13,041 nt of DNA, from positions 1-13,041 of the forward strand of contig JACRGO010000068.1 in the NCBI GenBank assembly GCA_016212295.1, given 5' to 3'. Every line of letters begins with the position of its first letter. The first letter of the stretch is position 1. The stretch comes from Nitrospinota bacterium. GTDB taxonomy: Bacteria > Nitrospinota > Nitrospinia > JACRGO01. A program made the position numbers and the translations under genes. Below are positions 3,290 to 8,824 of the stretch, piece by piece. Under the pieces are notes generated by a model. It was given only the letters and a program-made list of their open reading frames with translations. It had not been told where the DNA came from and did not search any database.

Positions 3290-3850
3290 ATGAAAAAACC
3301 AGCCGCAATCATTTTATTTTTTACCTTTTTTTTATTCAACGGGCCGTGTTTTGCCGTGGAACCTGCTCCAAGGATTAGTGACAGGGAAATAATTGAGAGC
3401 CTTGCTGAAATAAAAACAGAAATAAAAGCGATTAAGCATGAGTTTGCCATCCAGTTTGAACAAGTGAATAAGCGGTTTGAGCAGGTGGATAAACGGTTTG
3501 AGCAGGTGGACAAGCGGTTTGAGCAGGTGGACAAGCAGTTTGAGCAGGTGAATAAGAGGATAGACGATTTAAGGGCGGATATGAACACTAAGTTCGAGGA
3601 CGCAAACGCTGTAAACAGGATGTTTTTTGGCTATACAATGTCGGTCCTCCTGGCCTTGTTCGGATACATTATCTGGGACAGGCGGACCTTAATGAAACCA
3701 CTGGAGGACAAGATTCTTTCCATCGAACGGGAGTTTGATATCGGCGGAAGCGACGGAAGCAAAATAACAAGGCTGATTAATGCGCTAAGGGAGTTGTCCA
3801 AGGAGGATGAAAAGGTGGCCGGTGTGTTGAAACGGTTTCATCTTTTGTAA
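3290..3850 (+). CDS. Secreted/membrane coiled-coil protein with heptad repeats (copy 1)
   Basis: Function unknown. ATG 3290 (or the in-frame ATG at 3284) starts a signal peptide: MKKP, a run of Ile, Leu and Phe, then a PCFA cleavage-like end near residue 22. The mature part begins VEPAPRISDREIIESLAE, a motif shared with the gene at 8383. Residues 56-90 are five tandem heptads of the form FEQVDKR, encoded by five 21-bp DNA repeats (3455-3559). They predict a long coiled coil, extended by RIDDLRAD. A hydrophobic helix at about 111-130 (VLLALFGYIIW) is followed by WDRRTLMKP and a charged C-terminal part of about 50 residues. The likely topology is a coiled coil outside the inner membrane with a cytoplasmic tail. 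There is no good ribosome site. It may be read through from hisB. Confidence 0.85.
   Translation: MKKPAAIILFFTFFLFNGPCFAVEPAPRISDREIIESLAEIKTEIKAIKHEFAIQFEQVNKRFEQVDKRFEQVDKRFEQVDKQFEQVNKRIDDLRADMNTKFEDANAVNRMFFGYTMSVLLALFGYIIWDRRTLMKPLEDKILSIEREFDIGGSDGSKITRLINALRELSKEDEKVAGVLKRFHLL
3455..3559 (+). repeat. Five 21-bp tandem repeats coding FEQVDKR heptads
   Basis: Units start at 3455, 3476, 3497, 3518 and 3539. The consensus codes Phe-Glu-Gln-Val-Asp/Asn-Lys-Arg. The inner units are almost identical in DNA (TTTGAGCAGGTGGACAAGCGG-like), so recent unit gain or loss by slippage is likely. Because each unit is a whole heptad, copy changes keep the frame and only change coil length. Confidence 0.9.
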
Positions 3851-5670: not shown

Positions 5671-5919
5671 TTATTGCTTGGGCAGGTAATTTTTCTCTAT
5701 CTGTTCAAAGGCGGCCCTTAAAATCCGATAACACATTTTAATGTCGTCTTCCCTTTTTGTTTTCAGGTAAGCAAGGAGTTTTATAATCTCTGTTTCGACC
5801 GCGGAATCACCGGCTTTTTGATGGAGTTCAAAGTCAAAAAGGTCCTTGAGGGGTGTATGGAGGGCGCGGCCGATTTTTTCCAGGGCCATTAAAGATGGTA
5901 TGGATACCCCGCGCTCCAA
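5671..5919 (-). pseudogene. XRE-family regulator, C-terminal remnant
   Basis: The 82-codon frame encodes the end of a Cro/CI-type helix-turn-helix domain and its C-terminal tail. The sequence ISFLLERGVSIPSL is the classic recognition-helix end of this family, followed by MALEKIGRALHTPLKDLFDFE and a helical tail ending KNYLPKQ. Complete members have about 40 more residues before this point (first helices of the HTH). Here the frame continues only to NPRISFLL before losing resemblance, and it meets a stop at about 5972 reading leftward. There is no ATG or ribosome site; the TTG at 5917-5919 would make a protein without its DNA-binding helices. I read it as a truncated gene that meets the head of the protease gene at about 5930-5960. 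Confidence 0.7.
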
Positions 5920-5959
5920 TAAAAAAGAAATCCGGGGGTTAAGGCTGTTGGAGGTCCCG

Positions 5960-7303
5960 GTGAATAATTTTCAACTGGTTTCAAGAGATGCGCCTTCCAA
6001 GCGCCCGGATAACCTGAACGATCTGTTTTACCTGTATAATCCGAAGGGGATAAAATACATTTCAGGCTTAAAGGGAAGCGTGGTCACTTACCCATTGGTT
6101 TATAACAATAAGGCGCTGCTTTTTTGCGATTTGGAAAAGGTGGAGGAAGACCAATACGACCTCCTGGGCTTTCGTGGCGCCCCGCCCGGGCTAAGCGTGG
6201 GTTCGGAAAAGAGCATCGATCTGCATTCCGTTCCTTCCTTGGGGCTGTGCCAATTGAAAGGCAATAAAATCCACAAGATAAAAATCTCCGATAAAGCGGG
6301 CGAAGAATACTCTTCGGGAGGGAAAAAGAGATACGCCCTCGATCAGGGCGTGGAGGCTTCTCTTTTTAAAGATGAAATTTTTGATTTATTGCGGACGGCC
6401 GGGGGCCCGGAACAGGACACGCGGGAAGCGGATATTTTCAGCGAGCCGGATAAATCAATTTCCAGAAAATCCAGCTCTCCCAACTTAACGGTTGACTGCG
6501 CATCGCCTGATGAAAAATGCCAAATCAGCGGAATGGAAGATTTGGTGGTTCAGCAAGCAACGAACAGTTGGTGCTGGGCGGCGGTAACTCGGTCAATACT
6601 CAGATCATTAGGGAATGACACAATCACGCAATGCGATATTGCTTATTATGGCTCCGATCAAACTTATAGCGATTGTTACAAAGTGGGGAAATCCAACTGC
6701 ACGAAATTCAACAAAAACACCTACAAGAAGGACTCAAATAAGGAAGAAGGAAAGTCTTGTGCCAAGCAATCCGGGCAGATATATACTGTAGATCAAGCGC
6801 TTAGAAAGCTTAAAACGAAGGGAAAATTGAAAGCTTATCAACGAAATGAACCGTATTATTCCGAAACGGTTGCTGGATCAGGGAATGCAACAACCGGGTA
6901 TGATGATGTTTTAACCATGTCGAAGTACCTTTCCAAGGGATTGCCGCTTTACTTTGGAAGAATTTTGGAAGACGATAGTGGTCACGCATATGCTGTAAGC
7001 GGGTATTATGACGGCGGCTGGGTCTCCCGGGAATATTATCTCTCGGCTTGGGATCCCTGGCCTGATGGGATGCTTTTTTTTGGGGGCGGAGAATGGACAG
7101 ATTTACAAATAGATAAAATCATCATTGGCGAGTGGTTTTCCTTCAGCATTGGGTCAGGAAGCGCGGGCGGCTCCATCGACGCCACTAAGCCGAACAGGGA
7201 GCGTCAGCATAAACAGCGGGTCCTCCACCACGTTCTCCACGTCCGTGACGCTTTCCATATCCGCCACGGACGCCGTGGGCGTTACCGGCTATTACGCCTC
7301 TGA
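5960..7303 (+). CDS. Papain-like cysteine protease (C70/C39-like), frameshifted at its 3' end
   Basis: Probably cuts peptides with a Cys-His-Asp triad; target unknown. Starting at GTG 5960 (GGAGG at 5950-5954, 5 bases away), residues 1 to about 180 are an unrecognised N-terminal part. The protease follows: QQATNSWCWAAV with catalytic Cys205, then SGHAYAVSGYYDGG with His342, and LSAWDPWPDG with Asp365. Extra cysteines at TQCD, SDCYK, SNC and KSCAK hint at disulfides, hence export, yet no signal peptide is visible. After about 7192 the frame turns to arginine-rich nonsense up to the stop at 7303. Removing one A at 7193-7194 joins it smoothly (ATKPTGSVS) to the Ig-like domain in the next frame. 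A longer frame opens at 5846, but its first part is antisense to the regulator remnant. Confidence 0.7.
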   Translation: MNNFQLVSRDAPSKRPDNLNDLFYLYNPKGIKYISGLKGSVVTYPLVYNNKALLFCDLEKVEEDQYDLLGFRGAPPGLSVGSEKSIDLHSVPSLGLCQLKGNKIHKIKISDKAGEEYSSGGKKRYALDQGVEASLFKDEIFDLLRTAGGPEQDTREADIFSEPDKSISRKSSSPNLTVDCASPDEKCQISGMEDLVVQQATNSWCWAAVTRSILRSLGNDTITQCDIAYYGSDQTYSDCYKVGKSNCTKFNKNTYKKDSNKEEGKSCAKQSGQIYTVDQALRKLKTKGKLKAYQRNEPYYSETVAGSGNATTGYDDVLTMSKYLSKGLPLYFGRILEDDSGHAYAVSGYYDGGWVSREYYLSAWDPWPDGMLFFGGGEWTDLQIDKIIIGEWFSFSIGSGSAGGSIDATKPNRERQHKQRVLHHVLHVRDAFHIRHGRRGRYRLLRL

Positions 7304-7862
7304 GACTTCCACCACTCCCACGGCCTCCGCCTCGGGCTGGAAAGCTGTAACCTCCACCAAGAGCTATTCCAATTCCAAAATCTCCTTTACCCTGAGCAGC
7401 GGGGACGGGACCAAGACTGTGTACGTGTGGTTCAAGGACGCAGCGGGTAATGTGTCATCTCCGGCTAGCGATGCCATCACCCTCTCAACAGGAATAACTT
7501 TTACCGACAATGGAAACGGCACCGTTTCCGACAGCAACGGACTCATGTGGCAGCAGGGAGAAAATTCATCAACCTATAATTGGTATGTGGCTTCCGGCAC
7601 GTACGACGCAATGTACAATCCAAGTTCCACCAGCGTGTGCGGCTCTCTGTCCCTGGCCGGTTATTCCGGCTGGAGGCTGCCGACCTTTGATGAATTGAAA
7701 ACTTTAATAGACACAAGCCGCTCCACAGCGCCATATATAAACACAACCTTTTTCCCCAAATGCCCATTCATCGTACTATTGGTCGTCCACTACCAACGCC
7801 TACTATTCCAACGGCGCGTGGTACGTCTATTTCGGCAGTGGCTACGTCAACGACGGCTATAA
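7194..7862 (+). CDS. Ig-like plus DUF1566 (Lcl) domain, middle frame of the broken protease gene
   Basis: Not a gene of its own: it is the continuation of the protease in another frame. About 7194-7485 encodes an Ig-like, cell-surface style module (GSVSINSGSSTTFSTSVTL, ISATDAVGVTGYYASET, VYVWFKDAAGNVSSPASD). From about 7497, FTDNGNGTVSDSNGLMWQ and GYSGWRLPTFDELKTLID are diagnostic for DUF1566/Lcl, a C-type-lectin-like fold. At 7758-7760 an extra A breaks the frame; after it this frame reads nonsense to the stop at 7862. With one A removed the protein goes on as FFPNAHSSYYWSSTTN. An ATG at 7125 in this frame lies within the protease coding part and is not a real start. Confidence 0.7.
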   Translation, partial: TGSVSINSGSSTTFSTSVTLSISATDAVGVTGYYASETSTTPTASASGWKAVTSTKSYSNSKISFTLSSGDGTKTVYVWFKDAAGNVSSPASDAITLSTGITFTDNGNGTVSDSNGLMWQQGENSSTYNWYVASGTYDAMYNPSSTSVCGSLSLAGYSGWRLPTFDELKTLIDTSRSTAPYINTTFFPKCPFIVLLVVHYQRLLFQRRVVRLFRQWLRQRRL

Positions 7863-7908
7863 GGACGGCAACTACAGGTACGCCAGGTGCGTTCGAGGTG
7901 GACAGTGA
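7765..7908 (+). other. DUF1566 C-terminal segment with DGR-variable-region-like codon pattern
   Basis: This is the third frame of the broken gene, ending at TGA 7906-7908. It reads HSSYYWSSTTNAYYSNGAW, then alternating Tyr/Asn/Gly/Ser/Asp positions, and closes with ARCVRGGQ. Nineteen codons from 7801 to 7881 (for example 7801, 7804, 7810, 7813, 7822, 7828, 7834, 7837, 7840, 7843) are TAY, AAY, GGY, AGY or GAY. All can be derived from AAY by changing adenines, as in variable regions of diversity-generating retroelement targets, whose proteins end in the same C-type-lectin fold. DUF1566 proteins without a retroelement can also be rich in these residues. Confidence 0.45.
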
Positions 7909-8382: not shown

Positions 8383-8824
8383 ATGAAGAAGTTCTTTCCC
8401 CTTTTATTTTTTTTTTGTCTCTATTTGCCATGCCCCGGTGTTCGCTGTGGAAACGGCCCCTCGCATATCCGACAGGGAAATTATTGAAAGCCTCGCGGAA
8501 TTAAAGGAGGGGCAGAATACACTCAAGGCGGAGATAAGGGCAAATGCGGAGGCTGTTAAACAGTTGAGAGAAGACATGAATAATAGATTTAATGATGTGA
8601 ATAATCGATTTGATGATATGAATAATCGATTTGATGATCTCCGTTGGATGTTAAGTCTTTTTATCACTATTGCCCTTGTAATCCTCGGTTTTGTCCTCCG
8701 AATGCAGTGGCAGATGCAAAGGAGGCAGACCAAGATGGAGACCGCCCTGGAGACCCAGAAAGATGAGCTTTCATTCCTGAAAACCCTCATAGAAAAACTT
8801 TTACCTCCGAAAGGCGTGTTATAA
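8383..8824 (+). CDS. Secreted/membrane coiled-coil protein (copy 2), frameshift in poly-T of signal peptide
   Basis: Paralogue of the protein at 3290, function unknown. The mature part VETAPRISDREIIESLAELK matches copy 1 almost word for word, and is followed by three heptad units (NNRFDDM type, 21-bp repeats at 8579, 8600 and 8621). A membrane helix (LFITIALVILGFVLRM, about 8654-8705) and a charged tail ending PPKGVL complete it. As given, the frame is open only from GTG 8438, which has no ribosome site. An ATG at 8383 starts MKKFFPLLFFF in another frame. Removing one T from the T10 tract at 8407-8416 joins them into a fine signal peptide ending HAPVFA before VETAP. So the product needs a frame change at the T tract: a mutation, sequencing error, phase variation or transcript slippage. 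Confidence 0.75.
8579..8641 (+). repeat. Three 21-bp tandem repeats coding NNRFDDx heptads
   Basis: Units begin at 8579, 8600 and 8621 and encode Asn-Asn-Arg-Phe-Asn/Asp-Asp-Val/Met/Leu. Units two and three differ mainly at the end. The period is the same as in copy 1 at 3455-3559, but the unit sequence differs. Confidence 0.85.

What the first reader, a model, noticed from the sequence alone, without database searches (positions are those of the whole stretch)
7765..7908. DUF1566 tail looks like a variable region of a diversity-generating retroelement
Seen: from 7801 to 7881, 19 codons are TAY, AAY, GGY, AGY or GAY, all ending in C or T, set among constant residues (AW, V, F, K, R, A) and ending in ARCVRGGQ. 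These five codon types are reachable from AAY when template adenines are replaced. Known: retroelement target proteins end in a C-type-lectin fold, and DUF1566-like domains are, as I recall, among those used. Inference: the end of this protein was diversified by a retroelement elsewhere in the genome, giving a protease with a variable binding head. No reverse transcriptase or template repeat is in the window.
Basis: partly seen in the sequence, partly recalled or inferred. Interest (0 to 1): 0.75.

Follow-up and report, generated by a model that had tools for sequence, protein, structure and literature searches.

The report
Relic target of a diversity-generating retroelement
The end of this broken gene carries the fingerprint of a bacterial gene-scrambling system (a diversity-generating retroelement) that rewrites lectin-like binding tips; the same kind of target sits beside a complete system in a related Nitrospinota genome, but the machinery itself was not found in this genome.

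Summary
Window 7765-7905 is the 3' end of a DUF1566 (now Lcl_C, PF07603) domain; 19 of 27 codons in 7801-7881 are TAY/AAY/GGY/AGY/GAY (p about 1e-9 against the window's other genes). It behaves as a variable repeat (VR): at 17 template AAY codons its third bases match the template of a complete DGR in Trichlorobacter at 16 (permutation p 0.002; codon-usage null mean 7.1), and it shares this pattern with four dispersed paralogues in its own genome whose upstream regions differ widely. A Nitrospinota relative (same class) has the full cassette (Avd-like protein, template, reverse transcriptase, two DUF1566 targets); the 22 and 24 VR mismatches to its template all fall on template A, and one target carries an M23 peptidase domain. 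Best reading: a decayed or orphaned DGR target. DUF1566 is already the commonest Pfam domain among DGR targets, so this is a new member of a known kind.

The parts
5846..7303 (+). ORF (first plausible ATG at 5900) for a putative papain-like (C39/C70-like) cysteine protease; Cys codon 6572 (NSWCWAAV), His 6983 (GHAY), Asp 7052 (AWDPW)
   Evidence: Pfam C39_2 and C70 only at 12-13 bits, below cut-off; no homologue in the 76 other same-phylum genomes at E<=1e-10
7190..7197 (+). first +1 frameshift (frame 2 to frame 0), in the linker
   Evidence: sequence and ORFs; compare the intact linker of paralogue L018
7197..7493 (+). Ig-like linker (TGSVSINSGSS...DAITLSTG), frame 0
   Evidence: similar repeat in L018
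7521..7763 (+). first two thirds of the DUF1566/Lcl_C domain, frame 0
   Evidence: PF07603, 54 bits
7754..7761 (+). second +1 frameshift (frame 0 to frame 1), in a T5-C4-A3 run just before the variable repeat
7765..7905 (+). variable repeat (VR), frame 1: HSSYYWSSTTNAYYSNGAWYVYFGSGYVNDGYKDGNYRYARCVRGGQ
   Evidence: PF07603 7744-7896, 39 bits
7906..7908 (+). stop codon TGA ending the VR frame

Best explanation
The tail is a variable repeat of a diversity-generating retroelement (DGR). A template RNA, coding mainly for AAY codons at the variable positions of a C-type-lectin-like (DUF1566/Lcl_C) domain, was reverse-transcribed with random bases at its adenines, and the cDNA replaced the 3' end of this gene and of at least four dispersed sister genes in the same Nitrospinota genome. 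Shown: the VR fingerprint, homogenisation among paralogues, and a complete DGR with the same target domain in a relative. Inferred: mutagenic retrohoming itself, and that it acted in trans. After that the system was lost, silenced or left out of the assembly. The five VRs now differ pairwise by 12-21% at non-adenine positions, and this gene has two frameshifts, so it is most likely a relic target.
For: Third bases at the 17 codons that are AAY in the templates of two different DGRs match the Trichlorobacter template at 16/17 (permutation p 0.002; synonymous-codon null mean 7.1, 0 of 20,000 reach it), and own-genome VRs L015 and L016 at 16/17 (p 0.006). Differences among the window VR and L015-L017 fall on 56% of template-A sites against 14-17% of C, G or T sites. 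Upstream and tail histories disagree: third-position identity between L016 and L017 is 0.36 upstream and 0.85 in the tail, and between window and L016 0.36 and 0.69, while the window's upstream half is closest to L021-L025. Locus L072 (Nitrospinota, same class) has VR1, Avd-like protein, TR, RT and VR2, with 22 and 24 mismatches, all at template A and none elsewhere from base 16 on. L082 has VR, TR and RT. No DGR RT, Avd or TR found in G000.
Against: No template or DGR RT was found in the assembly, so the TR is inferred from relatives. The window VR carries 8 changes at positions that are non-adenine in both foreign templates relative to the five-VR consensus, and one extra codon (AGG), more than an active DGR would leave. 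A-site enrichment alone is partly a property of the fold: the less VR-like paralogue L021 also shows odds ratios of 1.8-4.0, so the third-base fingerprint carries the argument. No population reads were examined.
Confidence: 0.9

Rival explanations
1. The DGR is still active, with RT, Avd and template in the roughly 10% of the genome that is not assembled, and it diversifies this and other tails in trans; the two frameshifts are assembly errors.
For: Assembly of 237 contigs, 90.5% complete. A relative's contig (G074 C48) breaks off inside avd just after a VR, showing that such cassettes break assemblies. Trans-diversification of remote targets is reported in Thiohalocapsa (PMC10907252).
Against: Non-adenine positions differ by 9-16 of 76 between all VR pairs, whereas the intact L072 cassette shows 0 between VR and TR. 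Two frameshifts lie in one gene while the neighbouring genes are intact.
Confidence: 0.25
2. No retroelement: the DUF1566 tails are ordinary paralogues homogenised by gene conversion and diversified by positive selection at binding sites.
For: 16 DUF1566 matches over the Pfam cut-off in the genome; no DGR RT or template found; less VR-like paralogues also vary mostly at the same sites (L021).
Against: Gene conversion does not give about 50-60% change at positions that are A in foreign DGR templates while third bases match those templates at 16/17. The same tail is a clear VR next to RT and TR in the same class.
Confidence: 0.07
3. The tail was acquired already diversified, by recombination of the 3' end from a DGR target of another organism or phage, and was never rewritten in this genome.
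For: Foreign templates from Trichlorobacter and Nitrospinota fit about equally well; no machinery in the host assembly.
Against: Five dispersed VRs in this genome are about equally close to each other and each is fused to its own upstream region; the sister genome G001 has a true DGR, though of FGE type.
Confidence: 0.08

Closest known systems
DGR cassette of Nitrospinota bacterium NC_groundwater_1752 (L072, JACRGN010000216.1; contig G076 C103)
   Same: Same phylum and class; target tails are DUF1566 with the same constant residues (NSS-YWSSTT-A...AW-V-F--G-V----K----YVRC-RGG); AAY third-base pattern shared with the window (14/17); one target carries a peptidase domain (M23).
   Different: Complete there (VR1, Avd-like, TR, RT, VR2), and the target genes are intact; in the window genome no RT, Avd or TR was found and the gene is frameshifted.
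Trichlorobacter sp. MAG11 DGR (L082)
   Same: DUF1566 target, TR and RT side by side; template third bases match the window VR at 16 of 17 AAY codons.
   Different: Different phylum; cassette with an intact 252-aa target.
Bordetella phage BPP-1 DGR (Mtd/Avd/Brt)
   Same: Founding DGR: adenine-directed change of AAY codons in a C-type-lectin-like C-terminus (established knowledge).
   Different: Phage tail fibre target; Brt only 28-30% identical to the L072 and L082 RTs; the window genome lacks RT and template.
Legionella Lcl C-terminal domain (PDB 8q4e)
   Same: Best structural match of the L072 target model (E 6e-3, prob 1.00), the namesake of PF07603; described as C-type-lectin-like (PMC11162425).
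   Different: Not described there as a DGR target; trimeric adhesin head on a collagen-like stalk.

Membership tests
DGR variable repeat / target gene | VR lies at the C-terminal end of a C-type-lectin-type domain | tested here: met
   PF07603 to the last codons; model of the L072 homologue matches the Lcl C-terminal domain and then C-type lectins
DGR variable repeat / target gene | VR differs from a cognate template almost only at template adenines | tested here: inconclusive
   No own template found. Against foreign templates 25 of 40 (L072) and 25 of 39 (L082) mismatches are at A, p about 6e-5. The relative's own VRs: 22/22 and 24/24.
DGR variable repeat / target gene | Variation at codon positions 1 and 2 of AAY codons with the third base kept | tested here: met
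DGR variable repeat / target gene | Several VRs share template sequence while their flanks do not | tested here: met
   (L015, L016, L017, L019, window)
Complete DGR system | DGR-clade reverse transcriptase in the genome | tested here: not met
   only a group II intron type RT on C142; assembly 90.5% complete
Complete DGR system | Template repeat in the genome | tested here: not met
   searches found only target tails
Complete DGR system | Accessory Avd | tested here: not met
   only four-helix-bundle/IVP-like proteins below cut-off; the best one (C215) has no DGR neighbours
Complete DGR system | Population-level A-site variation | not testable with these tools
   no reads held
Papain-like cysteine protease (C39/C70-like) | Profile match and Cys-His-Asp/Asn catalytic order | tested here: inconclusive
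   Motifs present in order; Pfam 12-13 bits, below cut-off; no significant PDB relative

The most novel reading that the evidence does not exclude
A dispersed multi-target DGR in Nitrospinota rewrote the lectin-like heads of unrelated proteins (possibly proteases and a caspase-like gene) in trans and was then lost, leaving orphan variable repeats whose non-adenine drift records when it stopped; a second, Fib_succ_major-type VR family in the same genome suggests a second template.
Probability: 0.35. Interest if true: 0.5.

Novelty: new member of a known kind. Interest (0 to 1): 0.38.

Why it matters
It shows that a DGR target can be recognised without RT or template, from the third-base pattern and from tail-versus-flank incongruence, and that orphan or relic VRs exist in Nitrospinota, a lineage for which one paper search returned no dedicated DGR study. 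If the machinery is really gone, the five VRs give a way to date when a DGR stopped. Otherwise the finding is ordinary: DUF1566 is already the commonest Pfam domain among DGR targets (PMC6642488, PMC4159848).

Tried and rejected
The RT on C142 was considered and rejected as a DGR RT: by its sequence (GVDGIS..., maturase-like C-terminus) I read it as group II intron type. The Avd-like protein on C215 was rejected: four-helix-bundle/IVP-type, flanked by signalling genes, no TR or RT. The C182 match to the template 3' end was rejected as a template: it is a truncated VR end joined to a caspase-like gene. Family and order searches held only two genomes. No phage record encodes a template-like tail and no plasmid record a protease relative. 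NCBIfam's group II RT model also matches the L072 and G001 RTs but far below its cut-off, so it was not used to reclassify them. The 'all codons end in C/T' argument was set aside as mostly automatic.

Full report
Observation. The codon pattern is real: 19 of 27 codons in 7801-7881 are TAY/AAY/GGY/AGY/GAY, against 16.8% in seven other genes of the window (p about 1e-9), and no other stretch of that length in those genes exceeds 10. That all end in C or T is mostly forced by the genetic code; only the glycine codons could have differed. The tail belongs to a DUF1566 (Lcl_C, PF07603) domain, which Pfam finds in two pieces because the frame changes at 7754-7761. A second +1 change at 7190-7197 separates the putative protease from the Ig-like linker. 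As read, the protease ORF ends at 7303 without the lectin-like head.

Own genome. The window lies on contig 9 of a 3.74-Mb, 237-contig, 90.5%-complete genome. It shares its class with G076, whose contig C103 holds the L072 template at 100% identity and at the matching coordinates, so it is a Nitrospinota; the only other member of its genus, family or order held is G001. Sixteen Lcl_C matches in the genome pass the Pfam cut-off, two of them the halves of the window domain. Four tails (L015 and L017 on C34, L016 on C147, L019 on C97) share the window's tail pattern. Upstream of the tail, L016 and L017 agree at only 36% of third codon positions; in the tail they agree at 85%, while first positions agree at 65%. 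Window and L016 go from 36% to 69%. The window's upstream half is instead closest to L021-L025. The tails thus share a source that their upstream halves do not, and they differ mainly where amino acids change. That is the expected trace of copying from a mutagenised template.

Evidence that this tail type is a DGR target. A scan of genome contigs found 13 relatives. In L072 (Nitrospinota bacterium NC_groundwater_1752) an 882-aa Peptidase_M23-NHL-DUF1566 protein, an Avd-like protein, a template, a reverse transcriptase and a small secreted DUF1566 protein lie in a row. The template encodes NSSNYWSSTTNANNSSNAWNVNFNNGNVNNNNKSNNNYVRCIRGG. Excluding the first 15 bases, VR1 and VR2 differ from it at 22 and 24 positions, all template adenines and none other. 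In L082 (Trichlorobacter) VR, template and RT are likewise adjacent. Viral contigs hold further RT-linked cases.

Fingerprint. At the 17 codons that are AAY in both foreign templates, the window's third bases equal those of the L082 template at 16 places (p 0.002 by permutation) and those of L015 and L016 at 16 (p 0.006). Redrawing synonymous codons from the window's own codon usage gives a mean of 7.1 and never reaches 16 in 20,000 trials. Pairwise differences between the window VR and L015-L017 fall on 56% of template-A sites and 14-17% of the others; shifting the template against the window-L016 pair weakens the effect. A less VR-like paralogue, L021, shows a weaker A-site enrichment, so part of that signal reflects the fold; the third-base pattern is the stronger test.

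State of the system. PF00078, BPP-1 Brt and the L072 RT find only a group II intron type RT in the genome; Avd and template searches find nothing convincing. Between any two of the five VRs, 9-16 of 76 non-adenine positions differ, with no clear pairing, as if all were last copied at about the same time and have drifted since (inference). With the two frameshifts this favours a relic. An unassembled cassette remains possible: in G074 the contig breaks inside avd beside a VR, and trans-acting DGRs are known (PMC10907252). The sister genome G001 has a DGR with Avd, RT and an FGE-type template, a different template type.

Structure and function. The AlphaFold model of the L072 small target (mean pLDDT 72, 11 sequences; low in the VR loops) best matches the Legionella Lcl C-terminal domain, then C-type lectins; the Lcl paper itself reports the C-type-lectin-like similarity (PMC11162425). 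The likely function of intact relatives is a binding head whose surface residues are scrambled (inference). Fusion to a peptidase is shown for L072 VR1 only; in the window it is inferred and broken.

Known or new. DUF1566 is reported as the most common Pfam domain in DGR target genes (PMC6642488, PMC4159848). The finding is a new, probably derelict, member of a known kind.

Noticed in passing
L031 (G000 C60), L032 (C211), L033 (C156): A second VR-like family with Fib_succ_major-type tails: L031 and L032 agree at 94% of third positions but only 74-76% of first and second in the tail, against 72% and 90-95% upstream. This looks like a second, more recent DGR target set.
   Followed up: partly
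L059 (G000 C182) 311-694: A VR 3' end (CYGKEGGAYARCVRGGK stop) is joined out of frame to the 5' end of a caspase-like gene, as if the middle of a caspase-VR target were deleted or the contig were chimeric.
   Followed up: partly
L058 (G001 C67) 113-1640: DGR in the sister genome: Avd, RT (44% to BPP-1 Brt over its first half) and an FGE-sulfatase-type template.
   Followed up: partly
L072 4748-7396: DGR target with Peptidase_M23, NHL propeller and DUF1566: a peptidase with a diversified head in the same class.
   Followed up: partly
L061 (G000 C34), genes of L017 and L015: A long and a short DUF1566 target lie next to each other in the order seen in L072, but without the Avd-TR-RT block between them, possibly its deletion site.
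   Followed up: partly
window 3454-3556 and 8576-8638: Tandem 21-bp repeats in two small membrane/coiled-coil proteins of the same kind (KRFEQVD and NNRFDDM repeats) on either side of the target gene.
   Followed up: no
window 5671-5919 (-): Small ORF resembling the C-terminal part of an XRE-type regulator, by eye only, overlapping the 5' end of the protease ORF; Pfam gave no match.
   Followed up: no
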